NCBI RefSeq assembly: GCF_009913235.1
Contig: NZ_CP047897.1
Span: 1,426,001-1,490,000 of the forward strand
Direction of reading: 5' to 3'
DNA: 64,000 bases
Origin: Nibribacter ruber
Lineage (GTDB): Bacteria; Bacteroidota; Bacteroidia; Cytophagales; Hymenobacteraceae
In this document: in pieces, positions 72 to 62,374 of the stretch
Layout of the letters: every line of letters starts with the position of its first letter
How positions within the stretch are numbered: the stretch's first letter is position 1
The notes under the pieces: generated by a model
The model's input: the letters and a program-made list of their open reading frames with translations, nothing else
Told to the model about the DNA's origin: nothing
Databases searched by the model: none
Made by a program: the position numbers and the translations under genes

Positions 72-113
72 GCCAAGAGCCAGCCCTTACCAAAGGCTGG
101 CTCTTGGCGTTTT
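72..113 (+). terminator. Intrinsic terminator after the dehydrogenase tail
   Basis: The arms GCCAAGAGCCAGCC (72-85) and GGCTGGCTCTTGGC (95-108) are perfectly complementary across a 9-nt loop and are followed by GTTTTT. The T-run is the left arm of the 38-bp palindromic element that starts at 108. Confidence 0.8.
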
Positions 114-145
114 TGGCGTATTTTCCAGAAAAGAGGCTAAAAACG
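108..145. repeat. 38-bp palindromic element, copy 1
   Basis: This copy matches the family consensus (left half near CGTTTTTGGCYTGTTTTCC, right half near GGAAAACAGGCCAAAAACG). It is placed after a stop codon, and its left T5 tract doubles as the tail of the preceding terminator stem. Confidence 0.85.
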
Positions 146-419
146 ATGGCATGGGAGTAATCCGTTTTCAGATAGAAAGGGAGAAAATTTCTTGCTGTGA
201 GTTTGACGTAATGAGGCATCCATTGTAGTTTACAAGCGATTAGGTTGCACTGGCGTTGCGGAAGAAGTTGATGTGATTTTTTCACTTGGCAGCAACTGGT
301 AGGTTTTTTTTAACATCATCTGAATAAATACTGAATTTAGCAGTAAGCTGGCGGCAATGAGCAAAATGGGCGCTGAGTTCTTTACCTTCGGGGTCAAAAG
401 CAATTCCATCTTCTATTCC

Positions 420-1202
420 ATGAAAAAAGCATCCCTCCTACTCTTCTTCCTCTTGGTGCAATTAACCGTTTTTGCCCAGGAAGCCGCCGAACAAGAATTT
501 GAAACGGACCGGCCCAGCAAAACCGAGGCCTCCAGCCTGGTACCCAACGGCTATTTCCAGCTAGAAACGGGAGCACAGTTTGAAAGAAACGAATACGGAG
601 ATTTGGTAGGCAAAGAATGGCTATACCCCCAGGCACTGGTGCGGGTGGGCATCTCCTCCATAGTAGAGTTTCGCGCCGAAGGGACCTTCAGACGCCAGCA
701 GACCTGGTCTGGCGACCAGCTGGCCTACCAGCGCAAGGGACTGAGCACCGTGCGAGTGGGGTCAAAAGTGAACGTACTGCAAGAGAAGGGCTTGGTACCT
801 GAACTGTCTCTTTTGCTCATGTTGGAGCTGCCCTTGGGCAAAGAAGGGTACAAACCTGAAAACGTAGCACCAGAGTTCAAACTACTGCTTTCCAACCACC
901 TCACAGACAGGATTCAGCTGCAGTACAACGTTGGCTACAGAAAAGAGCCTGAGTACGGTGAAATGGAAGAAAAAATCCAGTACTCGGCTACTTTGAGCGG
1001 CAAACTAACGGATAGGATTTCTCTGTTTGGGGAGTATTTTGGCGAAAAGACCAACACCAATTCTGAAAACAACATTGACGGCGGCCTGCAGTTCTTGATT
1101 TTACCCAACCTGCAAATAGACGCGATCATAGGGACCAATCTTTCTCTGGACGTTCCCAATTTCTTTACCGGCGTCGGCCTTAGCCTGCGTCTGCCTCAGT
1201 AA
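420..1202 (+). CDS. Putative outer-membrane beta-barrel, MetA-pathway/transporter family
   Basis: A 260-residue exported protein. The ATG at 420 is chosen because it opens a clean signal peptide (MKKASLLLFFLLVQLTVFAQ, cleaved after FAQ); the in-frame ATGs upstream would add an uncharged leader. The mature start FETDRPSKTEASSLVPNGYFQLETG is diagnostic of the phenol-degradation MetA/transporter-like barrel family (PF13557) common in Bacteroidota. Alternating hydrophobic strands run to the C-terminal LSLRLPQ, consistent with an outer-membrane barrel. The substrate is unknown. The acetyltransferase gene follows after 26 bp and may be co-transcribed. Confidence 0.75.
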   Translation: MKKASLLLFFLLVQLTVFAQEAAEQEFETDRPSKTEASSLVPNGYFQLETGAQFERNEYGDLVGKEWLYPQALVRVGISSIVEFRAEGTFRRQQTWSGDQLAYQRKGLSTVRVGSKVNVLQEKGLVPELSLLLMLELPLGKEGYKPENVAPEFKLLLSNHLTDRIQLQYNVGYRKEPEYGEMEEKIQYSATLSGKLTDRISLFGEYFGEKTNTNSENNIDGGLQFLILPNLQIDAIIGTNLSLDVPNFFTGVGLSLRLPQ

Positions 1203-1228
1203 GCAGCAAGAAACTGACCTCTACCCTT

Positions 1229-1759
1229 ATGCCGCTAGAAACCGATTTTGTTGTAGAAACCGATCGCCTAACCTTAAGTAGGGTCACGCCCGCAGACGCT
1301 CCGTTTATCTTAGAGATCGTCAACAGTCCGGGCTGGCTAATGTACATAGGAGACAGGAACGTGCACACGCTGGAACAGGCCCATTTTTACATGGAGAACG
1401 CCTACTTCGGCAAATACCGGCTGCAGGGCTTCGGCATGTATCTGGTGCGCCGGAAGGAAGACCAGGCGGCCATGGGACTGTGTGGGTTGGTGCAACGCGA
1501 GTATCTACCGGGCCCAGACCTGGGCTATGCGTTTTTGCCTGGTTTTGGCGGAAAGGGATACGCCACCGAAGCGGCCCAAGGGGTGCTCACCTACGCCCGG
1601 GAAGAACTCAAAATCCCCCGCCTACTGGCCATGACCCTGCCAGACAATCACGCTTCCATCCGGTTGCTAGAGAAGCTTGGGTTTAGGTTCAACAACACGC
1701 TGCAGGACCCCAACACCCAGGAAGACCTGAACTTGTACAAGAAAGAGCTCTTGTCATGA
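1229..1759 (+). CDS. GNAT-family N-acetyltransferase (RimJ/RimL-like)
   Basis: A 176-residue protein with the layout of ribosomal-protein-type acetyltransferases (PF13302): an N-terminal ETDRLTLSRVTPADAPFILEIV strand-helix, a central GYAFLPGFGGKGYATEA acetyl-CoA pyrophosphate loop (about residues 108-124), and a C-terminal NHASIRLLEKLGF segment. It should transfer acetyl from acetyl-CoA to an amino group; the substrate cannot be told from sequence. Length is normal for the family. It is followed by a bidirectional terminator shared with the convergent lipoprotein gene. Confidence 0.85.
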   Translation: MPLETDFVVETDRLTLSRVTPADAPFILEIVNSPGWLMYIGDRNVHTLEQAHFYMENAYFGKYRLQGFGMYLVRRKEDQAAMGLCGLVQREYLPGPDLGYAFLPGFGGKGYATEAAQGVLTYAREELKIPRLLAMTLPDNHASIRLLEKLGFRFNNTLQDPNTQEDLNLYKKELLS

Positions 1760-1764
1760 AACGC

Positions 1765-1794
1765 AAAAGGCCACCAGAAAACTGGTGGCCTTTT
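1765..1794. terminator. Bidirectional terminator between convergent genes
   Basis: AAAAGGCCACCA (1765-1776) pairs perfectly with TGGTGGCCTTTT (1783-1794) across a 6-nt loop, giving an A-tract/T-tract stem that can stop transcription from both sides. Confidence 0.85.
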
Positions 1795-1816
1795 GTTAGT
1801 ATGGACTCTAGGAAAT

Positions 1817-2284
1817 TTAGCGCTTTACCTCTACCGGATGGTCTTCCAGCTGGGCGTAGTGCAGTTTCCAAGCGCCTTTGTCGTTCTTTTTCCAAATCAG
1901 CATGTAGTTGCCTTCGCCCTGGCCTCTTGGCAATTCGCGGCTTTCTGGGATTACATCAACGGTGAAAGTACCACCTTCAAAGGCAATTTTTTCATCGGCG
2001 CCTGTGCTGATGGCAGACGTTCTCAGGTTCTCAATCGTCCCCATGGTCTCGCGTACCCATTTCTGGGACACTTCGCTTTTTCCGTTGAAATGTACCTCGC
2101 CTTGCACAAAGTGGGCGTCTTCGGCCAGTAGGGTATCTAGCTGGGTAGAGTTTTTGCTGTTCCAGGCGCCAATAAACTGTTGGCTGAGTGTAGAAACGTT
2201 GAAGGGTTCTTTTTCTTCCATCTTGGTACAGGAAGAGAAACCTACTAACAGCACTACCAAGAACATTAACATATTTGATTTCAT
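1817..2284 (-). CDS. SnoaL/NTF2-like (DUF4440-type) lipoprotein
   Basis: 155 residues. The N-terminus MKSNMLMFLVVLLVGFSSC is a lipoprotein signal with lipobox GFSSC, so the protein is likely membrane-anchored on the periplasmic side or in the outer membrane. The rest (FIGAWNSKNSTQLDTLLAEDAHFV ... GNYMLIWKKNDKGAWKLHYAQ) has the cone-shaped NTF2-like fold pattern of DUF4440/SnoaL proteins: helix, loop with DxxF, then a beta-sheet ending in W+LHYAQ. No catalytic residues can be assigned. It is monocistronic, convergent with the acetyltransferase gene. Confidence 0.7.
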   Translation of the reverse strand: MKSNMLMFLVVLLVGFSSCTKMEEKEPFNVSTLSQQFIGAWNSKNSTQLDTLLAEDAHFVQGEVHFNGKSEVSQKWVRETMGTIENLRTSAISTGADEKIAFEGGTFTVDVIPESRELPRGQGEGNYMLIWKKNDKGAWKLHYAQLEDHPVEVKR

Positions 2285-2367
2285 AGAATCGGGTTTTAGT
2301 GATGGATATGCCTCATACTCCTTTTAAATATTAGGAGTTTCAAATATTTTACGATTTGGGTAAGAAA

Positions 2368-2394
2368 AAAGCCCAAGCACAGGGCCTGGGCTTT
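2368..2394 (-). terminator. Terminator of the glycine-zipper gene
   Basis: AAAGCCCA and TGGGCTTT pair at the ends of a 27-bp hairpin; on the minus strand it is followed by a T-rich tract (plus-strand AAGAAAAAA at 2362-2370). Confidence 0.7.
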
Positions 2395-2414
2395 CTAATT
2401 TTAAGCGGTATCGC

Positions 2415-2942
2415 TTACCAGCTCTTTCTTCTGTACTCTGTGTTAGAGTAAGGCTTAGAATAGTCACCGTAGTCTTCGTTCGGCAAAAAGGCCATGTTGT
2501 CCATGCTCATGATCTGTGGCTGGCCGGCAGTATAGCCCGTGTAGGCCATGGTAGCGGCGGGGGCAGCAACGGCAGCAGCTTTAGTAGTTGATGCTTTTCT
2601 GCTTGATCCGGCAGATCTGTTAGAAGAACTATAGGCATAGGCTCTGTTAGCGGCAACGTTTCTGTTGAACTCGGCTACACGCTCAGCCTCTCTTTTCTTT
2701 TGTTTGTTGTCAATGATCTTACCAACCCCATACCCAACGGCGGCTCCACCAACACCACCCACTACACCACCTACGGCGCGGTTTCTTTTGTGAATGATGG
2801 CCCCGGCAGCAGCTCCGGTAACACCGCCAATCACGGCACCTTTCGCTTGTGGGCTCCACTTTTTATCTTGTGCTTGAACAGATCCGCTTACTAGTAAAGC
2901 AATCATCAACACCAGGCTTAACATTACATTTACCTTTTTCAT
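2415..2942 (-). CDS. Glycine-zipper envelope protein
   Basis: 175 residues from the ATG at 2942. A start 39 bp upstream is possible but would bury the signal peptide MKKVNVMLSLVLMIALLVSGSVQAQ. The mature part opens with AKGAVIGGVTGAAAGAIIHKRNRAVGG and continues GGVGGAAVGYGVGKIID, the GxxxG-rich glycine-zipper pattern (YMGG-like, PF13488/PF13441) thought to form membrane-associated helical hairpins. A basic linker and an Ala/Ser/Thr-rich C-terminal half follow. Probably a periplasmic or outer-membrane stress-type protein; no enzymatic motif is seen. Confidence 0.7.
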   Translation of the reverse strand: MKKVNVMLSLVLMIALLVSGSVQAQDKKWSPQAKGAVIGGVTGAAAGAIIHKRNRAVGGVVGGVGGAAVGYGVGKIIDNKQKKREAERVAEFNRNVAANRAYAYSSSNRSAGSSRKASTTKAAAVAAPAATMAYTGYTAGQPQIMSMDNMAFLPNEDYGDYSKPYSNTEYRRKSW

Positions 2943-3387
2943 AACAGTTTCTTTTATTGTGGGAGATGTTTTTTCATTCACTCTGTTGTGGTTGACCTTA
3001 TTTCAAGTTCCGTGCCAATTTCTTGCAGAGCGTTTAAATCTTTTTGTTTCGTTCTGACAGTCATTATTCAAGTACCGTGCCAAAAAGCTAATGCGCGTTA
3101 CCTACCATCAGAAGGCTTATACTCCCTACACTGCATTTTAGATGCGTGCACAAGCCCCTACACTGGTCCATTCTCTCTGTTTGGGAGTTTTTATTTCGAT
3201 TAAAACATACGCTTACCTTCCTGACTATTAACCTTCTACCCGAATCCATTCCTTAACAGACCAGGTACTTTATAATATAGAATTTAATATATTCTAGTAC
3301 CTTAGGCTACACAATTTCTGGCAAAGCAAGGAATTACTTTATTATAAGAAGTAAAACAAATAATTGCTTGCCCGCTCAGTCTCACGT
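2943..3387. other. Intergenic region between divergent genes, 445 bp
   Basis: No convincing gene is seen. It holds a 17-bp near-exact direct repeat (TTCAAGTTCCGTGCCAA at 3002-3018 and TTCAAGTACCGTGCCAA at 3067-3083, starts 65 bp apart) close to the glycine-zipper start, plus an AT-rich stretch around 3268-3302 bounded by GGTAC/GTACC. It probably carries the promoters of both flanking genes. Confidence 0.5.
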
Positions 3388-3699
3388 ATGGAAAACACTG
3401 AAGAATACGCCCTGTTTGGGAAAATGACGGCCCAGCCCGGCCAACGCGAAGCACTCCTTTCTATCTTGCTGCAGGCGGCTCAACTGGTCTCCACCGCAAA
3501 AGGGTGCCACCAATACCTGGTTTACAAAGACACCCAGCACCAGGACTGTATCTGGATAAGCGAGATTTGGGACAGTAAAGCCGATCATGACGCCTCTTTG
3601 ACTATTGCGGGCTGTAAGGAATTGATCATGCAGGCCATGCCCCTGCTGGCGGGCAAACCTGAAAGAACTGAATTGACGTTGTCGGGAGGCAAGCGCTAA
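3388..3699 (+). CDS. ABM-type (antibiotic biosynthesis monooxygenase) quinol monooxygenase
   Basis: 103 residues from the ATG at 3388; a TTG start 24 bp upstream would only add a non-conserved leader. The sequence (EEYALFGKMTAQPGQREALLSILLQAA ... GCHQYLVYKDTQHQDCIWISEIWDSKADHDASL) is the ferredoxin-like dimeric alpha/beta barrel of the ABM/YgiN family (PF03992), with the conserved W.SE.WdskadHdaSL strand-helix. Such proteins oxidise quinols or degrade haem; the substrate here is unknown. Length is standard. The DUF885 peptidase gene starts 33 bp downstream. Confidence 0.8.
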   Translation: MENTEEYALFGKMTAQPGQREALLSILLQAAQLVSTAKGCHQYLVYKDTQHQDCIWISEIWDSKADHDASLTIAGCKELIMQAMPLLAGKPERTELTLSGGKR

Positions 3700-3732
3700 C
3701 TGACAGGTAACCTTAACAATCCTCCTTTTCAC

Positions 3733-5058
3733 ATGAGCGTAAGAAATCTCTGGCTGCTGCTGGCCATGCCTTTGTTTTTGGCTTGTTCTGGCCAAAAGAG
3801 CCCAAAAACGGATGACGTAGCAAAACTGAACCAACTGGCGGCAGAATACGTGCAACTCGGTTTAGGCATTGGCCAATATGATCCGGACTTTGTTGATGCT
3901 TATTACGGGCCAGACTCCTTAAAACCAACCGGACCCAAGCAGCCCACGTTCCCCAAAGACACCCTGCTGGTACAGGTTCATCATTTGCTTGGCCAGTTGA
4001 AGCCCTACACCACCGCAGAAACACCAGACAGCCTAAGAACGCGCGCCCACTGGATCTCTCAGCAATTGGTAGCCTTCGGGCGCCGCATCAAGATTATTTC
4101 TGGCGAGTACGCTTCCTTTGACGAAGAATCCAAGGACCTGTTTGGTGTGGTGGCTCCGCACTTCCCTGAGGGCACTTTTCCCGGCATTGTGAAGCAGTTG
4201 GACAGCCTGTTGCTAGGTTCCGGCACGGTGCAGGAGCGGTATCAGAAACTGGCCAGCAGTTTCTACCTTCCCAAAACCAAACTGGATACCGTCTTCAAAA
4301 CCGCCGTGGCTGAAGCCCGCCGCCGTACGCTGCAGCATTTTCAGCTTCCGGCGCAAGAGTCCTTTGTGATTGAATATGTCACCAACAAGCCCTGGTCTGG
4401 CTACAACTGGTACAAAGGCTATCAGCAGAGCGTGATTCAAGTGAACACAGACCTTCCCAAGAGCATCAATGACGCCATTCTACTGGCCTGCCATGAAGGC
4501 TACCCGGGCCACCACGTGTACAATGCCCTGCTGGAGAAAAACCTGTACCAAGACCAAGGCGGCATTGAAATATCACTGTATCCGTTGTTCAGTCCGCAGT
4601 CGTTTATTGCCGAGGGCAGCGCCAACTACGGCGTAAGCGTGGCCTTTCCGCCCGCCGAACACCAGCGCTACGCCCGGGAAGTCTTGTTACCTTTGGCTGG
4701 CCTGGATACGACTCACCTAAGCCTCTACTACAAGGCCAGCGCCTTAATGGGCAAACTCAACTACGTGCGAAATGAGGTAGGCAGAAAACTTCTGGCCGGT
4801 ACCATCACCCAGGCCCAGGCTGCGCAGCAACTGGTAGCGGAAGGCCTTTATGAAAAAGCATCGGCTGAGAAATCAGTAGACTTCATCCAAAAATACCGCA
4901 GCTACGTGATTAACTACAACTATGGCCAGGACCTGGTGAAGCAGTACATTGAGACCCAGGGCGGCACCGCCTCAGCCACAGACAAGCGCTGGCAATTGTT
5001 TGGTGAACTCCTCAGCAACCAGGTCACGCCCACCGACTTGCTCCAGAAAACAAAATAG
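3733..5058 (+). CDS. DUF885-family zinc peptidase-like lipoprotein
   Basis: 441 residues. N-terminus MSVRNLWLLLAMPLFLAC gives a lipobox LFLAC with Cys18. The key motif HEGYPGHH lies at residues 254-261, matching the modified HExxH zinc site of DUF885 proteins, and a downstream FIAEGSANYGVSVAFP holds the likely third zinc-binding Glu. DUF885 members are usually 550-600 residues, so this is a shorter variant. Predicted role is an envelope-located metal-dependent peptidase or hydrolase of unknown substrate. It may be co-transcribed with the monooxygenase gene upstream. Confidence 0.75.
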   Translation: MSVRNLWLLLAMPLFLACSGQKSPKTDDVAKLNQLAAEYVQLGLGIGQYDPDFVDAYYGPDSLKPTGPKQPTFPKDTLLVQVHHLLGQLKPYTTAETPDSLRTRAHWISQQLVAFGRRIKIISGEYASFDEESKDLFGVVAPHFPEGTFPGIVKQLDSLLLGSGTVQERYQKLASSFYLPKTKLDTVFKTAVAEARRRTLQHFQLPAQESFVIEYVTNKPWSGYNWYKGYQQSVIQVNTDLPKSINDAILLACHEGYPGHHVYNALLEKNLYQDQGGIEISLYPLFSPQSFIAEGSANYGVSVAFPPAEHQRYAREVLLPLAGLDTTHLSLYYKASALMGKLNYVRNEVGRKLLAGTITQAQAAQQLVAEGLYEKASAEKSVDFIQKYRSYVINYNYGQDLVKQYIETQGGTASATDKRWQLFGELLSNQVTPTDLLQKTK

Positions 5059-5511
5059 TCTGGTACTTCTATCTACCTAATTGCTTTCCTTAAGGGAAAA
5101 GAAAGCTGCTTTGCATATCCACAACTGACTGGTGGCGGCTTTGGCTGCACATTATACTTTCATATGATCATCAATGATAGGTAAATACCAATAGCCTCTA
5201 CTATAATGTTGTCATTTAGGAGATTGGAAGCAGGAAGCTTGCGTACATCGTTTTTGGTCTGTTCTCTTGAAAACAAGTCAAAAACGATGCATTAACGAAT
5301 TCTCTCGTGCCTCACCTTGCTAACTCTGTATTGCAAGGGGGTATGCTATTTTCCGTTTTATTGCTTTTCAGCCAGAGAATAAACCAAAGTGAGGCCTGGT
5401 GAGACATAAATGAGCTTAACAGAAAACCCAAATTCTTTTGGATTAATAATGCTAGTTTCGGCCGACGGCTGCCGACGCCGTTTAATATAACCGTTGGTCT
5501 TTCTTAGAAGA
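5059..5511. other. Intergenic region, 453 bp, with repeat copy 2
   Basis: No gene is seen. It contains one 38-bp palindromic element and, near its right edge, a GC-rich patch around 5460-5480 with GCCGACG twice, immediately before the AT-rich membrane gene. The sequence ACCGTTGG at 5490-5497 recurs inverted downstream of that gene. Confidence 0.5.
5249..5286. repeat. 38-bp palindromic element, copy 2
   Basis: CGTTTTTGGTCTGTTCTCTT and AAAACAAGTCAAAAACG halves; the flanks CAT/ATG extend the stem by a few pairs. It lies 190 bp after the DUF885 stop codon. Confidence 0.8.
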
Positions 5512-6465: not shown

Positions 6466-6554
6466 ACAATGTGTAAAAACCATACGTTCGCCAACGGTCG
6501 GTACTCCGTTTACACCAGTTCCATAATAACTACCTTTAATAATTCCCCATCCTC

Positions 6555-6608
6555 CCAAAAACGACAAAGCCAGCCTTCCACCCAGAAGCTGGCTTTGTCG
6601 TTTTTGGG
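6555..6608. terminator. Long hairpin terminator sharing the left arm of repeat copy 3
   Basis: The arm CCAAAAACGACAAAGCCAGC (from 6555) pairs with GCTGGCTTTGTCGTTTTTGG ending at 6608, across a loop of about 14 nt. The second arm overlaps the left arm of repeat copy 3, which also supplies the T-tract. It lies between the AT-rich gene and sbcC. Confidence 0.7.
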
Positions 6609-6636
6609 GTATTTTCCCGGAAAGAGACCAAAAACG
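6599..6636. repeat. 38-bp palindromic element, copy 3 (three-armed)
   Basis: A full copy preceded by an extra right-arm half (CCAAAAACG at 6555-6563) and a unique stem. The left arm can pair either backwards with that half or forwards with its own right arm. Confidence 0.8.
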
Positions 6637-6703
6637 GAAATGCCGCCCTCCTATCCTTCCTCAAAACCTGTTATCTTTAGGGACTCGCTTAGTTTCCAAT
6701 CCC

Positions 6704-10375: not shown

Positions 10376-10415
10376 TGCACATGCCTCAACCCTTTATTCC
10401 TTTTGCTGCTGAGGT

Positions 10416-12448: not shown

Positions 12449-12456
12449 AGAACTAC

Positions 12457-20783: not shown

Positions 20784-20821
20784 TGTTTTTGGCTTGTTTT
20801 CCAGGAAATAGCCCAAAAACA
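20784..20821. repeat. 38-bp palindromic element, copy 8
   Basis: Ends TG/CA instead of CG/CG (a compensated pair), core TTTTTGGCTTGTTTTCC and GGAAATAGCCCAAAAA. Located between the small reading frame and the FtsX gene. Confidence 0.8.
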
Positions 20822-23370: not shown

Positions 23371-23408
23371 CGTTTTTGGGCAGTTTTCTGAGAAATAGCC
23401 TAAAAACG
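23371..23408. repeat. 38-bp palindromic element, copy 9
   Basis: CGTTTTTGGGCAGTTTTCT and AGAAATAGCCTAAAAACG halves with AT/AT flanks; 5 bp after the permease stop codon. Confidence 0.85.
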
Positions 23409-25386: not shown

Positions 25387-25440
25387 GCCACTCCCGTTTT
25401 TGGGCTGTTTTCATGAAAACAGCCCAAAAACGGGAGTGGC
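25387..25440. repeat. 54-bp perfect palindrome built on repeat copy 10
   Basis: The arms are fully complementary over 27 bp: GCCACTCCCGTTTTTGGGC then TGTTTTCA, mirrored by TGAAAACA and the complement. The core is the 38-bp family; the outer 8 bp (GCCACTCC/GGAGTGGC) are unique to this copy. It is followed by TTTTTT, so it can also act as a terminator for the M61 gene 15 bp upstream. Confidence 0.9.
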
Positions 25441-28992: not shown

Positions 28993-29055
28993 AATAGCCT
29001 AAAAACGAGAAGCCCTGCAGCACAACGCTGCAGGGCTTCTCGTTTTTAGGCTATT
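28993..29055. terminator. 28-bp-arm hairpin between convergent DUF4249 and nucleoside phosphorylase genes
   Basis: AATAGCCTAAAAACG plus AGAAGCCCTGCAG (28993-29020) is perfectly complementary to 29028-29055 across a 7-nt loop. The outer part of each arm is one arm of the 38-bp element; the inner part is unique. It would stop transcription from both sides. Confidence 0.8.
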
Positions 29056-29078
29056 TTCTGGGAAACAGGCCAAAAACG
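29041..29078. repeat. 38-bp palindromic element, copy 11 (three-armed)
   Basis: CGTTTTTAGGCTATTTTCT and GGGAAACAGGCCAAAAACG halves. Its left arm is shared with the preceding hairpin, and its right end is 1 bp from the stop codon of the leftward phosphorylase gene. Confidence 0.85.
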
Positions 29079-29919: not shown

Positions 29920-29957
29920 CGTTTTTGGCTTGTTTTCTGGGAAACAGGCCAAAAACG
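29920..29957. repeat. 38-bp palindromic element, copy 12
   Basis: CGTTTTTGGCTTGTTTTCT and GGAAACAGGCCAAAAACG halves; 18 bp upstream of the phosphorylase ATG, where it would lie in the 5' leader. Confidence 0.85.
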
Positions 29958-45204: not shown

Positions 45205-45236
45205 AAAGAGGCACCCCGGGAACGAGGTGCCTCTTT
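45205..45236. terminator. Bidirectional terminator between convergent genes
   Basis: AAAGAGGCACC (45205-45215) pairs with GGTGCCTCTTT (45226-45236) around a 10-nt loop, serving the ABC-F gene and the convergent gene at 45260. Confidence 0.8.
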
Positions 45237-47246: not shown

Positions 47247-47284
47247 CGTTTTTGGGCTGTTTCCGGTAAAATAGCCCAAAAACG
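47247..47284. repeat. 38-bp palindromic element, copy 21
   Basis: CGTTTTTGGGCTGTTTCCG and TAAAATAGCCCAAAAACG halves; only 2 bp upstream of the CoA-transferase ATG, so the whole ribosome-binding region is made of repeat. Confidence 0.85.
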
Positions 47285-53015: not shown

Positions 53016-53403
53016 TAAGGAGAGGTTTATCTAGCCTGATTAGTTATACAGGCGCTATTGGAATCACTAGAAGATTACTTTCTAATTTCTCCCAAATAAA
53101 TCATATACATTCCTTAACGTATTACTATTAAAGCAGTTACATATATTTAGATTCCTTTTTAAAATAGGCTTCTAAGAAATTAAGCACTTTTATCATTATA
53201 GGAAAGGAACTCATCTTAATGGCTTGTTTGCCAATTATCCTCCCTCCTCCATTCTATGCTGCAGGCTAAATTTAAAATTTAGATATACCAGGAAATTATA
53301 TAATGCTTCTTATAAATGTTTTATCCCAATAAGCCCCAAATATTCCATGAAGGGCTGGTTTGGTATGCTTCTACTCTTGACGGACGTCTAGTATCTATAA
53401 AAT

Positions 53404-53428
53404 AAAAGCAGCGGCCAATGGCCGCTGC
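53404..53428 (-). terminator. Terminator of the giant YDG-repeat gene
   Basis: GCAGCGGCC-AAT-GGCCGCTGC perfect 9-bp stem with TTTT on the minus strand. The flank CTTTCCCTATAGCATCCTA closely matches that of the terminator at 51259, pointing to duplication of the 3' regions. Confidence 0.85.
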
Positions 53429-53479
53429 CTTTCCCTATAGCATCCTACTGCTAGTATTAAAAAGTACTTAGGTCATAGT

Positions 53480-56400: not shown

Positions 56401-58840
56401 GTAGAACATAATTCCCAGCATTGGCTCCGCTGATGGTAATGTTAGGCGTCACTGAGCGGTACCCTACCGTAGATGATTGAAAAGTACCTTTCCCAACCAA
56501 AGTCACCACATCTGGTGCTATCACCCCATCCAAGGTTGCGGTAATGGTAGTGGCTCTATTGGCATTATAAACCTTGTCTTGAGCAATTGCATTTACCACT
56601 GTAAGTTCTTTGGGCGTGATGTTGGCCTTTAAACCCGCGGGTTGGGCAATGCTATAATTGCCAGCGTCAGCACCGGAAAGGGTACTCGTTACACTCACCG
56701 GGATGTCAATTCCTACATTCACGGAGTTAAAAGCACCTGCATGGGCTACAGCCACTTCATCCTCTGAGATTACTCCCACCAGGTCACCTGAAATTATTGC
56801 TGCATTGGTCCGGTCATACACTTTGTCATTGGCCGAGGCATTTGCCAGCGTTAGCGCTTTTTTGCTAATAGTGGCCGTGCCTGAGGCCTCGGCTCCGGTG
56901 GGAATCTCATAATTATCCCGATCTGTGCCTACAAACGTGATGCCTGAAACTGTGACGGCATGGGTACCCACATTTTTGCTGGCGAAGGTAGCATCACCAT
57001 ATTCAACTCCCAGGTTGTCACCCGCCAGGATATTGGTTGAAATAGTTGCGGACGCATTGGTGGTGCCATCATAATCCCGGTTTTGAGCGTGCACGGTGAG
57101 CACAACTGCTCTAGGAGCAATATCTGCCGTGGTAGTGGCTGTTGCGTTTACGGTGTAGTTTCCAGCATCTGCTCCTGATAAGCCAAGGCCTGTCACCGTT
57201 ACCATCTTGCCAGTGCCTACATTCTCATCTTCAAAAGAAGCAGTGCCACCTACCAAGGAAACAACGTCATTCCCAATCTTTCCCTCTAGGCTCTTAGAAG
57301 AGATAGACCCCGTAGTAGTTTTATCATACACTTTGTTACCCACGGTCACCACACCTGTAATGGCAAGCGGCGTTATTGCACCTTTTACATTGGTAGTGAG
57401 CGTATAATTTATCTTGTCATTGCCGGTGAGCGCCGCAGTTGGGTTAGTAATTAAAATTGCTTTGTTAACTCCTACTGTCTTGGTGTCAAAAGCGGCAGCC
57501 ATTGAAGAAATGTCCACCGAAATATCATCTGTACTTATGGCATCAGGCAAAGAAGGCGAACCTACCAGGGCAGCCATGGTTGAACCATCATATACCTTAG
57601 TTTCAGCAGAAACGCCACTAAGGCTTAACGCTTTTCTAGTGATGGATGCCACCGCCGTGGTTGAGGTGTTGAACAAAGTATAGTTAGTGGCTCCGGCTCC
57701 GGACATTGAAATTCCAGTAATTGAGACGGTTTTACCTGTTCCAGCGTTTTTATCTGAAAATTCGGCGGCACCATAGGATAGAGAAATAATATCTTCCCCA
57801 ATTTTGTCTGACGCAAGAATGGCTGTGGTGGCAGTGGTGCCATCATATGTTTTACCCGAGGCGGTGGCAGTTACTTTAAGTGGTCTTGCCGTGATGGAGG
57901 CAGAACCTGTAGCAGAAGTAGTAGAAAGGGTATAATTACTCCCCTGCCCTCCTGCTGCTATGGAAATACCAGCAACAGTTACCACCTTATTAGGCCCAAC
58001 GTTCTTATCAGCAAAAGTGGCACCCGTAGAGGCAAGATTTACCACGTCACTCCCTAATGCATTATGAGACAGGGAAGCATTAGCGGAGGTTGTGCCGTCA
58101 TAAACTTTATCCTGGGCTGTAACAGTAACGGTTAAGGCTTTTTTATTGATGGTTAGTCTTACAGCGGTTCTAGAGGGGCTCACAAATCCACAGCTGTTCC
58201 TGGCCTCCGCGTAATAGGTATACGTAGAACCGGCAGCCGTTACGGTGGGCATGTAGGACGTGGTATTGGATATCAGCGGCGTACCCCCTGTTGCAGAAGC
58301 ATACCAGGTAATGCTTTGCCCAGTGGCAGCAGAAGCCGTTAAAGCCGGATTAGCAGTGCCGTAAGTTATTGTTTTATCTCCACCACTGATGGGTGCGCTT
58401 GGTGCTCCGGTTACACTAAAGGAGGTAGAAAAAGTGGAATTATTGCCATTTGTAACTCTAATATACCTTCCACTGCCAATAGACTCATTCGTTAAATTAA
58501 ATGAGGCAGAACCTCTACCAGGGTTAGAACTACCGTTTCCGGTTGTTATAGTAGCAGTAACAGACTGAACTACTCCAGCACCTGCAGCATTTCCATCAGT
58601 TACGGCTATGGCATAAGTGTTATTATTCCCCCCGCCCGTGATGGTCACTGTCATGCTATTGCCTACACAGAAAGGCCCGGCAGGTGAAAAGGTCACCGTC
58701 TGTGCTTGCACAAACGAAGCAGACAATAGAAAGAAAAACAGAAGAAATAGGGCTTTGCCGTAGCGGAGAAATGAATTTTGGGTAATGTAAAAAAGAGATG
58801 GCAGACGGGTGCCTACCCATGAAAGTAGAAGTTTTTCCAT
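53480..58840 (-). CDS. Giant T9SS-sorted protein with 16 YDG repeats
   Basis: 1786 residues from the ATG at 58840 (MEKLLLSWVG..., signal region ending ASFVQAQ about residue 47). An Ig-like N-terminal part (residues about 48-230, with ITYGTANPALTASAATGQSITWYASATGG) is followed by 16 tandem YDG domains of about 86 residues (residues 232-1603; KVYDGTT...VGTG..v.vtG..lsGadAGNYtl...a.IT) and the 183-residue shared cassette with sorting signal (KAYPNPTTDKVQLDF ... TYLLKLTGKEVNTFLRVVKR). Repeats 7, 13 and 16 have degenerate YDG cores (YNAN, EYGG, LWDG). Likely a long surface adhesin fibre, perhaps for gliding or biofilm. Repeat sequences are diverged, so the array is old. Confidence 0.93.
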   Translation of the reverse strand: MEKLLLSWVGTRLPSLFYITQNSFLRYGKALFLLFFFLLSASFVQAQTVTFSPAGPFCVGNSMTVTITGGGNNNTYAIAVTDGNAAGAGVVQSVTATITTGNGSSNPGRGSASFNLTNESIGSGRYIRVTNGNNSTFSTSFSVTGAPSAPISGGDKTITYGTANPALTASAATGQSITWYASATGGTPLISNTTSYMPTVTAAGSTYTYYAEARNSCGFVSPSRTAVRLTINKKALTVTVTAQDKVYDGTTSANASLSHNALGSDVVNLASTGATFADKNVGPNKVVTVAGISIAAGGQGSNYTLSTTSATGSASITARPLKVTATASGKTYDGTTATTAILASDKIGEDIISLSYGAAEFSDKNAGTGKTVSITGISMSGAGATNYTLFNTSTTAVASITRKALSLSGVSAETKVYDGSTMAALVGSPSLPDAISTDDISVDISSMAAAFDTKTVGVNKAILITNPTAALTGNDKINYTLTTNVKGAITPLAITGVVTVGNKVYDKTTTGSISSKSLEGKIGNDVVSLVGGTASFEDENVGTGKMVTVTGLGLSGADAGNYTVNATATTTADIAPRAVVLTVHAQNRDYDGTTNASATISTNILAGDNLGVEYGDATFASKNVGTHAVTVSGITFVGTDRDNYEIPTGAEASGTATISKKALTLANASANDKVYDRTNAAIISGDLVGVISEDEVAVAHAGAFNSVNVGIDIPVSVTSTLSGADAGNYSIAQPAGLKANITPKELTVVNAIAQDKVYNANRATTITATLDGVIAPDVVTLVGKGTFQSSTVGYRSVTPNITISGANAGNYVLLTQPGGLFATITPKPISVSSPTAQSKEYDGTVDAAVNGALTGVESEDIGAVSLSLVGAFNNKNVGTGKPITVTGTLAGSRAINYDLAEVTGLAANITPKGLTVSGVTAISREYDRTTIAKLQGTPVLTGVISGDNVAFNPNLLTASFTDKTVGVNKPVSVSGNALTGTDAGNYTFSQLTGLTATITAKPVTILSASVNNKVYDATTSATLNGSMSGVISGDAVTLSKVANFVSPDAGTGITVNSTSTLAGGDAGNYVLTQPTGIKADILRKALSITSPVAQSKTYDKTNAATITGNLTGLAGSDVVSYTPTGTFASVNVGTGIEVTFTGGLTGAKSGNYTLNIPTGLKANITPRGLTIANVKAQDKIYDRTTAAVIKGDLTGVLAGDVVVWDGTGTFASARVNRQNQNDPVDPIPVAYNNGSLGGIHAGNYSLNLTSPSGLSAKILPKVLTPIVEAYYTIEYGGTPDVTISTRGLTGVISPDFVSLYINFSLINVNVGEYQAIPLSLSIGSTDKNNYDLSPNTAYANIRVTARSLAVSASGANKVYDGDDVASVSFSDNRIAGDDITITYASAKFDNKNAGTNKPISIAGLAISGTKAANYVLPTTPVSATGTITKRPLTINGLTANDKEYDGIANVLGFTGTAAFVNMVAGDNLNLVGTASGICDSKDAGSRVVTLAGLTHGGTDAGNYTFTLPVNMAMRINPKAVTGSFTAEDKLWDGTTIARVTSVTINGRVGADDVSFSGKANFIDADMGEDKPVVFDFTSAQLSGLQRANYVLTSIANAAADIINPLPVTLVSFTGKAQKNQVILNWTTATEINNEYFQVERSADGKNFNVIGKVKGSGNSSMVMNYTFQDASPLDAIGYYRLKQVDYDGKFEYSKVISVQVKGTAPTSITVKAYPNPTTDKVQLDFAHLSNALVLIQVLSLDGHVVQTQEVPGGHIHTLDLTALANGTYLLKLTGKEVNTFLRVVKR
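54032..58147 (-). repeat. Array of 16 YDG-domain coding repeats
   Basis: Each unit is about 258 bp and encodes a domain beginning with a K-x-L-T-V strand and the K-x-Y-D-G/R/K-T-T core and closing with GNYxL...ITPK. Counted by eye from the protein. Nucleotide identity between units is low. Confidence 0.8.
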
Positions 58841-59528
58841 GACTGTACTTAAAAAAAGAGAAAGCGTGTAGGAAGCAGTAAAGCAGACACCTGTACACAG
58901 GCGGAGGAGGCGCAATAGGAATCTTACTATGTAGTCTGAGTAGCCAAAAGGCTATGCCAAACCAAGAGAATTATGGAACGGAGGATTCAGGAGAGAACCT
59001 TTAAAACTTGCTAACCTGGTGGGGAGTCAGGCTATAGGCAGCAATCCATCAACACGTGTGCAAACTTCACAACGACCAAGGCTCTGAAAGAAGAAATAAG
59101 CTAAACGGCACTCAAAATAAAGGAGAATAATACCAACTAAGACACTGGCTGGCACATCTTATAAATCCCTAACGGCAATCTTGCAACACAGTTACAATCA
59201 TCTTAATTTTTCTTTATTAAATACAAATAATAAAGATTTTATCTCTCTTTAAGTGCAAATAATAATAAATATCACTAGAAAAACCCTATAACCCGTTTAT
59301 TCAAAATTCTACTTGGCTATTTCCTTGGCTTTATAAGATTTCGACCACCTTCTACCCCGAAGCCATCCTTTGAACTACGCTATTCCAAGAAAAGAAACAG
59401 CAAAACCACCTATCATCCCATGGTAAGAGCCTAGTTCTTGCACTATAGTGTGGCAAGAAAACCTTATCTTTACTAAACTTAGCCCCGTGGCAACGGCCAC
59501 CGGAAGAAGTAACTAGATAAAAAGATAA
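58841..59528. other. 688-bp intergenic region between the giant gene and the DEAD-box helicase
   Basis: Divergent promoters are expected here. It holds leader hairpin copy D at 59008-59032, an AT-rich middle (59155-59320) and, at 59465-59472, TATCTTTA, a possible -7 box of the helicase gene with about 56 nt of leader. No gene is seen. Confidence 0.5.
59008..59032 (-). promoter_or_regulatory. Conserved T9SS-gene leader hairpin (copy D)
   Basis: Minus strand GCCTG, loop ACTCCCCAC, CAGGT, overlapping TTAGCAA; 168-192 nt upstream of the ATG of the giant gene. Confidence 0.45.
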
Positions 59529-60989
59529 ATGAGCGTTACATTCGATGATTTCAACCTGCAGACCGATTTGCTGGACGGCATACGGTCTATGGGTTACAAA
59601 CAAGCCACTCCCATTCAGGCACAGGCCATTCCGCATATACTAGAATCAAAAGACCTGATTGCCTGCGCCCAGACCGGTACCGGCAAAACGGCCGCGTTCC
59701 TGGTGCCTACCCTCAGTAAGATCGCCGAGGCCAAATTTGATTTCACCAGCACCTTAATTTTAGTACCTACCCGTGAACTGGCCAAACAGATAGATGACCA
59801 GGTAGAAGGCTTAAGCTACTTTACCGGTGCCACCTCCATTGCCATTTACGGCGGTAACAACGCCCAGAACTGGGACCAACAGAAACACGCCCTCACCAGC
59901 GGCGCAGACATCATCATCGCCACGCCCGGCCGTCTCATCGCGCACATGCAGATGGGGTACGTGAAGCTAGACCAACTCAAGTATCTCATTCTGGACGAAG
60001 CCGATAAAATGCTGGACATGGGTTTCATGGATGACCTCATGAAGATCATCAACCAGCTGCCCAAAGAGCGCCAGACCCTGCTTTTCTCGGCTACTATGCC
60101 ACCTAAAATCAGAGAGTTTGCCCGTAAGATCCTGCAGCAGCCAGAAGAAATAAGTCTTTCTATTTCTAAACCCGCCGCCAACATTGACCAGCAGATTTAC
60201 CTGGTGTATGACCAGCAGAAACTAAAACTGTTGCAGCATATCTTAAAGGACGCCGAAGTACAGACCATGATTTTGTTCACTTCGCGCAAGTCTGCCGTGA
60301 ACGAGATTGTGCGCGCCCTGCAGAAAATGGGCTTTGAGGCCGAGGGCATCAGTTCAGACCGCACCCAGGACGAGCGCGAGGCCACCTTGCAGAAGTTCAG
60401 AAACAAGCAGCTACAGGTACTGGTAGCCACCGACGTAATGTCCAGAGGCATTGACGTAGACAACATCAGCCACGTAGTCAATTTTGACGTGCCGCAGGAC
60501 GCCGAGGACTATGTTCACCGCATTGGTCGTACGGCCCGCGCCGGTACCAAAGGCATGGCCATCACCTTCGTGAATGAGCGCGACCAGGAACGCCTGGTAA
60601 AAATTGAGAAATTGATTGAGCGCGAACTGCCCAAGCTTACCTTGCCAGAAGCCGTTGGCGAGAGCCCAGCCTATGACCCCGTTGGAAACCGCAGCAAGTT
60701 CAGCCGTGACAAAGGCGGCCGAGGCGGAAGCCGTAGCGGAGGCGGGCCCAGAAGAGAAGGTAGCACCGGAGGTAGCGGGGACCGTAACCGAAGCCAAAAG
60801 CCAAGAGGCGAACGTCCAGCCGCAGCTGCTCCGGCAGGTGAACGCCCCTCGCAAGCAAACCAGGCCACCGGAACCCCAACGTCGGCTACCGGTGAGGTAA
60901 AGAAAAAGAAACGCCGTAAAAAGCCATTCAGACCAAAGAACACTGAAGGCGGAACTTCCTCTGCACCTGCCACCCCGGCAGCAGAATAG
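59529..60989 (+). CDS. DEAD-box RNA helicase (RhlE-like)
   Basis: 486 residues. Q-motif FDDFNLQTDLLDGIRSMGYKQATPIQ, motif I AQTGTGKT, Ia PTRELAKQ, Ib TPGRL, II DEAD (LDEADKMLDMGF), III SAT, IV ILFTSRKS, V VATDVMSRGIDV, VI HRIGRTARAG: a complete helicase core ending near residue 365. The C-terminal about 100 residues are basic and low-complexity (RDKGGRGGSRSGGGPRREG ... KKKKRRKKPFRPKN), an RNA-binding tail typical of Bacteroidota RhlE proteins. Role in RNA unwinding, ribosome assembly or cold adaptation. Confidence 0.95.
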   Translation: MSVTFDDFNLQTDLLDGIRSMGYKQATPIQAQAIPHILESKDLIACAQTGTGKTAAFLVPTLSKIAEAKFDFTSTLILVPTRELAKQIDDQVEGLSYFTGATSIAIYGGNNAQNWDQQKHALTSGADIIIATPGRLIAHMQMGYVKLDQLKYLILDEADKMLDMGFMDDLMKIINQLPKERQTLLFSATMPPKIREFARKILQQPEEISLSISKPAANIDQQIYLVYDQQKLKLLQHILKDAEVQTMILFTSRKSAVNEIVRALQKMGFEAEGISSDRTQDEREATLQKFRNKQLQVLVATDVMSRGIDVDNISHVVNFDVPQDAEDYVHRIGRTARAGTKGMAITFVNERDQERLVKIEKLIERELPKLTLPEAVGESPAYDPVGNRSKFSRDKGGRGGSRSGGGPRREGSTGGSGDRNRSQKPRGERPAAAAPAGERPSQANQATGTPTSATGEVKKKKRRKKPFRPKNTEGGTSSAPATPAAE

Positions 60990-61010
60990 AACAGGTTTCA
61001 TCTAAATAAT

Positions 61011-61066
61011 AGAAGTGGTCGTTTTTGGCCTGTTTTCTAGGAAACAGGCCAAAAACGACCACTTCT
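61011..61066. repeat. 56-bp near-perfect palindrome built on repeat copy 22
   Basis: Outer arms AGAAGTGGT/ACCACTTCT are specific to this copy; core CGTTTTTGGCCTGTTTTC and GAAACAGGCCAAAAACG. One mismatched pair near the centre. It starts 21 bp after the helicase stop. Confidence 0.9.
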
Positions 61067-61217
61067 ACTTTAGCTCAAATGTTAGGCGAAGAGACCTTCC
61101 CTCAGAAACTGTCCAACCAGAAAGGAAACCAAAGAAAGAGGTTGATGAAGGCGATGCGTCAGGATTGGCCAAGAAAACTTTGGTGCTAGCCATAACCTGA
61201 TCAGCGTTTCATCCTAA

Positions 61218-61279
61218 AAGCCCTGGGCCCGTTTTTGGCTTGTTTTCCGGAAAACAAGCCAAAAACGGGCCCAGGGCTT
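61218..61279. repeat. 62-bp perfect palindrome built on repeat copy 23
   Basis: Two 31-bp arms with no unpaired base: AAGCCCTGGGCCCG, TTTTTGGCTTGTTTTCC, then the exact complement. The outer 12 bp per side (AAGCCCTGGGCC) are unique to this copy. The centre is CC|GG, with no spacer. Confidence 0.92.
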
Positions 61280-61359
61280 CAATACAAAATTTGCCGTAGA
61301 ATGAAAAATCCATCAAAGACGCTTCTAAAACCAGCAAAAGACTGGCAACTGGAAACTGT

Positions 61360-61397
61360 CGTTTTTAGGCTGTTTTCCAGGGAATAGCCCAAAAACG
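61360..61397. repeat. 38-bp palindromic element, copy 24
   Basis: CGTTTTTAGGCTGTTTTCC and GGGAATAGCCCAAAAACG halves; 29 bp from the menA stop codon. Confidence 0.85.
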
Positions 61398-61426
61398 CGT
61401 GGAGCACTGGTCTTAAGGGTATAGAA

Positions 61427-62329
61427 TTATCTGCTTAATAGAAGCCCTACCCCAAACAGCAACACAAAGATCAGGGTAGACATAGCCATTTGCTTGAGCA
61501 AGGGGTCTAACTCTACGGCAGCCTGCCGGCGCTGCACTTCACGGCCGTTATAGAGTACAAGAGGAAGAGCGGCGACAAACAACCACTTCCAGAGAGACAA
61601 TTCTTCGCGCTGCAGAACAAACAACACCGCGCACAGAATACCGCCCACCAACAAAAACCAATGGTAGCGCCTAGCCCTGGTTGGCCCCAGCCGCACAGGT
61701 AGGGAACGCTTGCCGGCCAGTTCATCTGAGGCAATGTCCCGTATGTTGTTCACGTTCAAGACCGCCGCCGAAAAGAAACCCAGCGTAGAAGCGGGCAGCA
61801 GCATCTCAGAGAAAAAGCGTTGGGTTTGCAGAAAGTACGTGCCCATCACCCCCACCCAGCCAAAGAAGAAGAACACCGATATATCACCCAGACCGGCGTA
61901 GCCATAAGGTTTCTTGCCGTTGGTGTAACTAATGGCTGCCCAGATGGAAGCTAACCCTAGCAGTAAGAAGAAGAGGAACAGGTAAATGCCTTCGGTGCCC
62001 AGGGCTATCCAGAGCAAGGCAATGCCAGATACCAAAGACAGCAAACTGAACACGCCAATGGCGGCTTTCATCTGAGAGGCCGAAATATGACCTGCCTGTA
62101 CGGCGCGTTTCGGTCCCTGGCGGTCTACGCTGTCGGCGCCGTGCTGGCTGTCTCCGTAGTCATTGGCCAGGTTGGATAAAATTTGCAGGAACAAGGTGGT
62201 GAGCACGCATAACAACAAAACAGGCCACCTGGAAAGATGGTCTGCCGCCGCTAAAAATCCGCCCATGCCTATGCAGGAAAGAGACAGGGGCAGCGTCCGT
62301 AATCTGAACGCCGACACCCATGTACCCAC
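61427..62329 (-). CDS. menA: 1,4-dihydroxy-2-naphthoate polyprenyltransferase (MenA)
   Basis: 300 residues from a GTG at 62329, giving VGTWVSAFRLRTLPLSLSCIGMGGFLAA, the usual MenA beginning (RxRTLPLslasi). A longer GTG start at 62365 would translate repeat copy 25. The prenyl-diphosphate motif is NLANDYGDSQHGAD (Asp-rich NDYxD), followed by RAVQAG; a second Asp motif is NNIRDIASDELAGKRSLPVRLG. About eight membrane helices. It attaches the isoprenoid chain in menaquinone synthesis, consistent with the respiratory complex I genes in the window. Confidence 0.93.
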   Translation of the reverse strand: MGTWVSAFRLRTLPLSLSCIGMGGFLAAADHLSRWPVLLLCVLTTLFLQILSNLANDYGDSQHGADSVDRQGPKRAVQAGHISASQMKAAIGVFSLLSLVSGIALLWIALGTEGIYLFLFFLLLGLASIWAAISYTNGKKPYGYAGLGDISVFFFFGWVGVMGTYFLQTQRFFSEMLLPASTLGFFSAAVLNVNNIRDIASDELAGKRSLPVRLGPTRARRYHWFLLVGGILCAVLFVLQREELSLWKWLFVAALPLVLYNGREVQRRQAAVELDPLLKQMAMSTLIFVLLFGVGLLLSR

Positions 62330-62336
62330 CGCAGGC

Positions 62337-62374
62337 CGTTTTTGGCCTGTTTTTTCAGAATTCACTCAAAAACG
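62337..62374. repeat. 38-bp palindromic element, copy 25
   Basis: CGTTTTTGGCCTGTTTTTT and CAGAATTCACTCAAAAACG halves (decayed right arm). It fills the 49-bp gap between the glutathione peroxidase stop and the menA start. Confidence 0.8.

What the first reader, a model, noticed from the sequence alone, without database searches (positions are those of the whole stretch)
108..62374. A 38-bp palindromic intergenic repeat occurs 25 times in 64 kb
Seen directly: 25 copies with left half near CGTTTTTGGCYTGTTTTCC and right half near GGAAAACAGGCCAAAAACG, about one per 2.5 kb, listed individually. Every one is between genes; many begin 2-5 bp after a stop codon (16827, 20784, 23371, 38020) or abut one (35293, 29041). 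Several end pairs are compensated (e.g. TG/CA at 20784), so pairing itself seems selected. The T5 lies in the 5' arm, so it is not a classic terminator alone. REP/RAYT-type families are known, but no transposase is here. Role could be 3'-end protection, bidirectional termination, nucleoid binding, or a non-autonomous mobile palindrome.
Basis: partly seen in the sequence, partly recalled or inferred. Interest (0 to 1): 0.8.

Follow-up and report, generated by a model that had tools for sequence, protein, structure and literature searches.

The report
Genome-wide intergenic DNA palindrome in Rufibacter
This Rufibacter genome carries an estimated 1,700 copies of a 38-letter two-fold symmetric DNA site, usually one per gap between genes, kept at the same places in related species but respelled from species to species, which looks like the landing site of an unidentified DNA-binding protein rather than a jumping element or a simple RNA hairpin.

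Summary
In detail: 25 intergenic 38-bp palindromes in the window, plus one inside a gene. A 774-kb sample gives 300 copies, about 1,690 per 4.35-Mb genome. The model hits 16 of 16 genus (Rufibacter) genomes and 2 of 82 other relatives, weakly. Positions are conserved: of 154 orthologous gaps compared with G007 (88% protein identity), 90 have it in both, 58 in neither, 6 in one. Flanks differ at 47-66% of bases (ungapped), the T4-T6 core at 0-2%. Sampled species have their own "dialects", matching in both arms. Within the genome the arms vary independently, G-T and A-C mismatches are equal on the transcribed strand, and self-complementary centres are avoided, so RNA pairing is not what is kept in most copies. 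About 13% extend flush into flanking stems, some of them terminators, and do covary. Half-sites almost never occur alone; one foreign island has none. Y1/RAYT-like genes exist, but G007 has none and keeps the set. Best reading: duplex-DNA site of an unidentified symmetric protein at transcription-unit boundaries. The protein was not found; the boundary role is inference.

The parts
108..145 (.). 38-bp palindrome copy
   Evidence: weight-matrix score 55.9 bits
3773..3810 (.). copy inside a coding sequence (lipoprotein-like signal region of gene 3733-5058)
   Evidence: 39.2 bits; gene
5249..5286 (.). 38-bp palindrome copy
   Evidence: 46.6 bits
6599..6636 (.). 38-bp palindrome copy; its left arm also pairs with an upstream flank (I7)
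   Evidence: 49.1 bits
10416..10453 (.). 38-bp palindrome copy
   Evidence: 49.6 bits
15066..15103 (.). 38-bp palindrome copy
   Evidence: 52.9 bits
16827..16864 (.). 38-bp palindrome copy, 2 bp after a stop codon
   Evidence: 52.5 bits
17468..17505 (.). 38-bp palindrome copy, convergent gap
   Evidence: 42.3 bits
20784..20821 (.). 38-bp palindrome copy, divergent gap
   Evidence: 52.2 bits; genes
23371..23408 (.). 38-bp palindrome copy, 4 bp after a stop codon
   Evidence: 51.6 bits
25384..25443 (+). copy 25395-25432 nested in the loop of a terminator-like stem (AAAGCCACTCC / GGAGTGGCTTT, then TTT)
   Evidence: nested at the orthologous site of G007 too
28993..29078 (.). partial half-site, terminator-like hairpin, then full copy 29041-29078
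29920..29957 (.). 38-bp palindrome copy
   Evidence: 61.7 bits
34173..34210 (.). 38-bp palindrome copy
   Evidence: 49.8 bits
35048..35085 (.). 38-bp palindrome copy, right end degenerate
   Evidence: 41.6 bits
35292..35329 (.). 38-bp palindrome copy, 1 bp from the stop of the minus-strand gene
   Evidence: 55.4 bits
37147..37184 (.). 38-bp palindrome copy, divergent gap
   Evidence: 40.7 bits
38020..38057 (.). 38-bp palindrome copy, 3 bp after a stop codon
   Evidence: 47.9 bits
40957..40994. 38-bp palindrome copy; the same gap carries one in 7 further genus members printed and in G007
   Evidence: 60.1 bits
41693..41730 (.). 38-bp palindrome copy next to murI
   Evidence: 52.7 bits
45166..45203. 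copy in the convergent gap after the ABC-F gene; separate hairpin at 45205-45236; 7 further species printed, and G007, have a site in this gap (the G005 one is weak)
47247..47284 (.). 38-bp palindrome copy next to a start codon (47244 by the codon-based caller)
   Evidence: 54.0 bits
61010..61067 (.). copy 61020-61057 with 10-bp flush stem extension
61218..61279 (.). copy 61230-61267, perfect palindrome with 12-bp flush stem extension
61360..61397 (.). 38-bp palindrome copy (third within 380 bp)
   Evidence: 51.5 bits
62337..62374 (.). copy with a poor right arm; G007 has a near-identical one in this gap, G013 and G006 have weak sites there
   Evidence: 37.2 bits

Best explanation
Shown: the palindrome is a sequence-specific, two-fold symmetric site under purifying selection at conserved intergenic positions, an estimated 1,690 per genome, roughly one per gap, found in all 16 genus genomes searched, with species dialects in which both arms differ together. 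Inferred: it is read as duplex DNA by an abundant symmetric protein (dimer or dimer of dimers; each 19-bp half holds two GTTTT boxes 11 bp apart, about one helical turn), not as an RNA hairpin, and the protein's specificity has shifted between species, dragging the sites with it. Most speculative step: bound sites act at transcription-unit boundaries as insulators or roadblocks and/or nucleoid anchors. A minority of copies also form the apex of terminator-like stems and there keep their pairing.
For: 300 copies in 774 kb; half-sites of 20 bits or more are paired 516 times and single 8 times (6 single at a looser cut). One per gap: variance/mean 0.47 in 129 co-directional gaps of 120-600 bp (p 1e-4) and 0.28 in 38 convergent gaps of 60-250 bp (p 0.004); 0.55 in 28 divergent gaps, not significant (p 0.16). 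Gaps G000 v G007: 90 both, 4 and 2 one-sided, 58 neither. Divergence in 124 matched pairs: 0-1.6% at T4-T6, 4-6% at T15-T16, 12-19% at columns 1-3, 7, 9, 12, 25-41% at the other columns, 47-66% in ungapped flanks. Orthologous copies differ less than random pairs (7.0 v 9.1 of 38). Arms show no excess pairing (217 copies, z -1.6); flush-extended copies z +6.6 (n 32), the others z -4.1 (n 185); same direction in G007 and G005, weaker in G013, and in G006 only for the extended ones. GT 145 v AC 140 on the transcribed strand. Self-complementary centres 56 v 105 expected of 300, also low in G007, G013 and G005, hardly so in G006. Dialects CGTTTTTGGCCTGTTTTC, CGTTTTcGGGCTCATTTC, CGTTTAGgGGCTnTTTTT at the same gaps. 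791 near-consensus palindromes in the genome, 0 in the 394 other class genomes drawn (no other genus member among them).
Against: No binding protein was found; ParB and HU show no genus-specific extra copy, and no other family was screened. All functional steps are inferred. Copies occur in divergent gaps (37 of 300), so a pure boundary role is too simple, and gaps over 600 bp often hold two (7 of 21 convergent, 18 of 54 co-directional with two or more; some of these gaps may hide genes). Convergent copies pair slightly better than shuffled (z +2.1, n 57), G006 as a whole shows covariation (z +4.0, n 43), and both-side changes between G000 and G007 are slightly above independence (102 v 89). 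Separate intrinsic terminators are not clearly depleted beside copies (odds 0.49, p 0.05 co-directional; 0.66, p 0.28 convergent; stems nested around a copy were masked and not counted). In several species the dialect matrix is weak (12-16 bits). Genes came from a crude codon-based caller.
Confidence: 0.55

Rival explanations
1. REP/REPIN-like family: a palindrome once spread by a Y1 (HUH) RAYT transposase, now domesticated and slowly refreshed by it; dialects reflect different RAYT specificities.
For: Three Y1 genes in the genome with NHLH, WQ and YIHQNP (two of them) or YLHHNP (the third, L006), close to the motifs given for subclass 2.6 of Bacteroidetes, whose genes are described as flanked by 'atypical secondary structures' with copies elsewhere in the genome (PMC6006769, passages and one section read). 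L006 has a copy on both sides. Of 16 anchored Y1 loci all have a site on at least one side and 5 on both, against 326 and 74 of 469 ordinary genes (weak matrices in several species, and the background is not limited to single-gene units).
Against: G007 has no Y1 match by family or by protein yet carries the set at equal density and similar strength. Y1 matches occur in 18 of the 21 same-family genomes of other genera searched, which lack the palindrome. Positions are nearly fixed. No GTAG or CGTC foot. No copy in the one foreign island sampled.
Confidence: 0.2
2. RNA hairpin acting as bidirectional terminator or mRNA 3'-end protector.
For: Strong predicted folds (z -5.6 to -14, five chosen sites); enrichment in convergent gaps and near stop codons; nested copies in both G000 and G007 at 10 of 133 pairs, several with compensated outer stems; convergent copies z +2.1.
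Against: No excess pairing in ordinary copies, no excess of G-U over A-C, few self-complementary centres, invariant T4-T6 where compensated pairs would do for RNA. An A-tract, not a T-tract, ends the 3' arm. 37 of 300 copies in divergent gaps. In the Pontibacter and Hymenobacter loci looked at, the gap after the ABC-F gene has a plain hairpin or none (38 of 80 loci examined in all).
Confidence: 0.13
3. A palindromic DNA-uptake signal spread and kept by biased transformation, with dialects as known for Neisseria and Pasteurellaceae.
For: Copy number, genus restriction and dialects resemble DUS/USS (their features recalled; listings only).
Against: Uptake signals work as single directional words and are common in genes (recalled); here 516 paired v 8 single half-sites and 15 of 300 inside genes.
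Confidence: 0.07
4. Neutral fossils of an old MITE burst.
For: A decayed perfect palindrome would also lose arm covariation.
Against: Column-specific constraint beside strongly diverged flanks, and conserved positions with dialect shifts.
Confidence: 0.03

Closest known systems
REP / BIME / REPIN with RAYT (TnpA-REP)
   Same: short intergenic palindrome in high copy, mostly between convergent or co-directional genes, Y1 genes in 15 of 16 of these genomes
   Different: no GTAG/CGTC foot; 38-bp dyad whose halves are 19-bp words; an estimated 1,690 copies at nearly fixed positions; set kept in G007, where no Y1 gene was found
DNA uptake sequences (DUS/USS) and their dialects (recalled)
   Same: about a thousand or more copies, genus-wide with species dialects
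   Different: unit is the whole palindrome; single half-sites nearly absent; almost all intergenic
Chromosome-architecture sites (parS, Noc sites, matS, KOPS; recalled)
   Same: protein-site-like word dispersed on one chromosome
   Different: far more copies, in 19 of the 20 spaced 20-kb stretches sampled, about one per gap; a single ParB_N match and no Noc-like paralog
Intrinsic terminators
   Same: near 3' ends; some copies sit inside terminator-like stems
   Different: A-tract at the end of the 3' arm, no excess arm pairing in most copies, also in divergent gaps

Membership tests
REP/REPIN | short palindromic intergenic repeat in many copies | tested here: met
   300 copies in 774 kb, 15 inside called genes
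REP/REPIN | conserved GTAG/GTGG (or CGTC) tetranucleotide at the foot of the hairpin | tested here: not met
   half-site consensus CGTTTTTGGCCTGTTTTCC, next outer base only Y/R
REP/REPIN | cognate RAYT in the genome | tested here: not met
   15 of 16 genus genomes have Y1 homologs; G007 has none at E 0.001 by two searches but keeps the palindromes; a recent loss in G007 is not excluded
REP/REPIN | RAYT gene flanked by its repeats (REPtron) | tested here: inconclusive
   16 anchored loci: 5 both sides, 11 one side; background 74 both, 252 one, 143 none of 469 genes
REP/REPIN | mobility between sites | tested here: not met
   6 of 154 orthologous gaps differ between G000 and G007; slow mobility is not excluded
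Intrinsic terminator | stem followed by T-tract | tested here: not met
   core ends AAAAACG; T-runs after the outer stem only at some of the nested minority
Intrinsic terminator | compensatory pairing | tested here: not met
   ordinary copies z -4.1; flush-extended copies z +6.6
DUS/USS | single directional words | tested here: not met
   516 paired v 8 single half-sites
ParB/Noc site | extra ParB-family protein in the genus | tested here: not met
   one ParB_N match in each of the 16 genus genomes
Operator-like site of a genome-wide DNA-binding protein | a protein that binds it | not testable with these tools
   HU family not expanded; no systematic screen of DNA-binding proteins was made

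The most novel reading that the evidence does not exclude
A new kind of bacterial chromatin boundary system: one genus-specific architectural protein that occupies most transcription-unit boundaries through about 1,700 dyad sites, and whose specificity has shifted several times within the genus, with the set of sites rewritten in place each time (dialects), so that protein and sites co-evolve across a whole genome.
Probability: 0.33. Interest if true: 0.9.

Novelty: new variant of a known kind. Interest (0 to 1): 0.72.

Why it matters
If a protein reads these sites, Rufibacter has a very dense sequence-specific site set on its chromosome, about one per gene boundary, and a natural series of species in which the same sites have been respelled. 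That would make co-evolution of a DNA-binding protein with over a thousand sites directly testable, and would point to a transcription-boundary or nucleoid mechanism that I did not meet in the listings of ten literature searches (open-licence library only, a handful of terms). It also warns that intergenic palindromes should not be read as RNA hairpins or REPs without testing arm covariation.

Tried and rejected
RNA families: no Rfam match in the window at gathering scores. RNA-hairpin selection: rejected for ordinary copies by arm-shuffle tests, GT/AC symmetry and centre asymmetry; kept for the flush-extended minority. RAYT mobilisation: Y1 genes found and compared, not decisive, weakened by G007. 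ParB/Noc idea, prompted by a recalled likeness of the centre to parS: one ParB only. HU expansion: none. A seeming second lineage, G060 of another family with 80 half-site pattern hits: its five matches in the two 20-kb stretches read belong to an unrelated dispersed repeat, and the matrix found no palindrome in 60 kb. Uptake-signal idea: half-sites are almost never single. Terminator replacement: only weak anti-correlation. Centre polarity against transcription: 58 v 37, p 0.04, left as a lead. Clusters of three or more copies were read for a regulator gene; none stood out by eye. Literature: nothing on such repeats in Rufibacter or Cytophagales was seen; for only listings with the starts of abstracts (19 had no hit); papers were opened for passages: PMC6006769 (and one section), PMC3733652, PMC8049555, PMC5771137.

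Cautions on counts: dialect matrices were re-estimated starting from the G000 matrix; G001, G002, G003, G008, G010, G011 and G015 rest on 11-20 kb each and G012 on 40 kb. In one search, 16 of 157 copies could not be mapped and were left out, and the flank cut-off excluded none; copies inside called genes were dropped (124 of 133 pairs used), and flanks were compared without gaps, so small indels inflate their divergence. The RNA-model search scores at most 68 candidates per genome, so its counts are floors. In one search two of 18 loci (L004, L005) were not anchored properly and are left out of the 16. In one search, 38 of the 80 loci were examined. In one search only the first few matched gaps per species were printed.
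Full report
What is there. The window lies in a single 4,352,178-bp chromosome. Consensus: CGTTTTTGGCCTGTTTTCC, then GGAAAACAGGCCAAAAACG. The window holds 25 intergenic copies and one inside a lipoprotein-like gene, plus three weak sites in coding sequence. A 464-kb sample had 184 sites at 16 bits or more and none in the reversed control; a 774-kb sample had 300 at 22 bits or more, an estimated 1,690 per genome. A strict palindrome pattern with up to two mismatches finds 791 in the whole genome and none in the 394 other genomes drawn from the class, which included no other genus member. The covariance model hits 16 of 16 genus genomes and 2 of 82 others, with one or two hits each.

Where it sits. 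Of 300 copies, 78 are in convergent, 159 in co-directional and 37 in divergent gaps, 15 inside called genes and 11 at edges of the stretches. Presence by gap: convergent 60-250 bp 29 of 38; co-directional 20-60 bp 2 of 33, 120-250 bp 37 of 68; divergent 60-250 bp 3 of 18, 250-600 bp 15 of 28. Gaps carry about one each, with fewer doubles than Poisson (co-directional 120-600 bp: 5 gaps with two or more v 17.9 expected; convergent 60-250 bp: 1 v 7.1; divergent 250-600 bp: 1 v 3.2, not significant). In gaps over 600 bp doubles are common (7 of 21 convergent, 18 of 54 co-directional with two or more), though such gaps may hide uncalled genes. Half-sites over 20 bits are paired 516 times and single 8 times. 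Of 20 spaced 20-kb stretches one, L039, has no copy, where about 8 would be average; it is a 42%-GC island with ABC-three-component, STAND, Macro-domain and integrase genes.

It is conserved in place. G007 is collinear with G000 here at 80% DNA identity and 88% mean protein identity. Of 157 copies, 141 could be mapped and 133 have a copy at the matching place. Of 154 orthologous gaps of 45 bp or more, 90 have it in both, 4 only in G000, 2 only in G007, 58 in neither. In 124 matched pairs the ungapped flanks differ at 47-66% of bases, yet T4-T6 differ at 0-1.6% and T15-T16 at 4-6%, with 25-41% at the free columns. Flanks that diverged beside a core this constrained speak for purifying selection on the sequence.

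Dialects. Re-estimated matrices give CGTTTTTGGCCTGTTTTC (G000, G007), CGTTTTcGGGCTCATTTC (G013), CGTTTAGgGGCTnTTTTT (G005) and cGTTTTnGGcCTGTTTTc (G006), from 30 to 73 sampled copies each; other species are weaker or thinly sampled variants around GTTTT-n5-6-CTGTTTT. The same gaps carry each species' own spelling: with G013, 9 of the 11 gaps that have it in G000 (p 0.07); with G006, 13 of 14 (p 0.0005); the other eight more distant species compared have 3 to 11 informative gaps each, too few to test singly. The gaps at window 40957 and 45166 show a site in 7 further species as printed, and in G007. In the Pontibacter and Hymenobacter loci examined, the 45166-type gap has a plain terminator-like hairpin or nothing found. 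Both arms differing together in all sampled copies of a species is what a shifting DNA-binding specificity would do; it could also come from in-place conversion, but orthologous copies of G000 and G007 are more alike (7.0 differences) than random pairs of copies (9.1).

Not an RNA hairpin in most copies. Within G000 the arms pair no better than shuffled arms (217 copies, z -1.6). By context: co-directional z -2.7, convergent +2.1, divergent -0.3. Splitting by flanks only: 32 copies whose stem extends flush by 4 or more have z +6.6; the other 185 have z -4.1. With cuts of 5 or more and 2 or less the same split gives +6.9 and -3.8 in a larger G000 sample, +4.8 and -2.0 in G007, +3.0 and -0.9 in G013, +3.9 and -2.3 in G005, +5.6 and +0.8 in G006; G006 as a whole has +4.0 (8 extended copies each in the last three). 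On the transcribed strand G-T and A-C mismatches are equal (145, 140), whereas RNA would favour G-U. The central dinucleotide is CA or TG in 180 of 300 and self-complementary in 56 against 105 expected; self-complementary centres are also low in G007 (29 v 49), G013 (9 v 19) and G005 (3 v 11), hardly in G006 (10 v 13). Central asymmetry is known to hinder cruciform extrusion (recalled), so the hairpin looks like something avoided. Against this, both-side changes between G000 and G007 are slightly above independence (102 v 89).

The flush-extended minority. Of 225 copies 29 have flush stems of 5 or more, against about 1 in shuffled flanks. In 10 of 133 ortholog pairs both species are extended, several with different but compensated outer stems and a T-run after them: probable terminators with the palindrome at their apex. 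In 16 pairs only one species is extended. Half-sites on the far side of a terminator hairpin (window 28993-29078; G007 after the ABC-F gene) suggest template switching at hairpins as one source of perfect arms.

Mobile or domesticated? The genome has three Y1 genes with motifs close to tnpA-REP subclass 2.6 (PMC6006769 passages and one section). One (L006) has copies on both sides. But G007 has no Y1 match by two searches and keeps the set; 18 of 21 same-family genomes of other genera have Y1 matches without the palindrome. A mobile origin followed by capture remains possible. PMC3733652 (passages) reports REPs mainly between convergent and co-directional genes, so location alone does not separate the two readings.

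Mechanism. I commit to a duplex-DNA site for an unidentified symmetric protein present throughout the genus. Each half has two GTTTT boxes 11 bp apart, so the whole site offers four boxes on neighbouring helical turns. Occupying about one site per gap, it would act as a boundary or roadblock and/or nucleoid anchor. Shown: site, constraint, positions, dialects, lack of an RNA signature in most copies. Inferred: the protein. Speculative: the boundary role. Single-copy ParB and unexpanded HU make two easy candidates unlikely; nothing else was screened.

Noticed in passing
L039 (G000:C1:2640001-2660000): Low-GC (42.5%) island with ABC-3C C-terminal domain, sub-threshold Cap4 nuclease match, Macro domain, STAND-type NTPase and rve integrase; no palindromes.
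   Followed up: partly
L195:2805, 14023; L196:2139, 4405, 7739 (G060): An unrelated dispersed repeat in a genome of another family, containing TTTTTAGCCTRTTTT followed by GTCAAATAAYTGGC or close variants, which mimicked the half-site pattern.
   Followed up: partly
L004:2254-2291: Next to one Y1 gene of G000 lies a palindrome whose arms (TCATTT / AAATGA) fit the dialect of G013, as if gene and site came together from such a species.
   Followed up: no
window 28993-29078 and the G007 gap after the ABC-F gene (L007 near 13112): Half-site on the far side of a terminator hairpin: likely template-switch products.
   Followed up: partly
window 61020-61397: Three copies within 380 bp between a DEAD-box-helicase-like gene and the minus-strand gene 61427-62206; two have counterparts in G007.
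   Followed up: partly
own-genome sample, co-directional gaps: Central CA v TG of the copy shows a weak bias against transcription direction (58 v 37, p 0.04).
   Followed up: no
L045:46-3633: One long gene contains three palindrome-like sites in its coding sequence.
   Followed up: no
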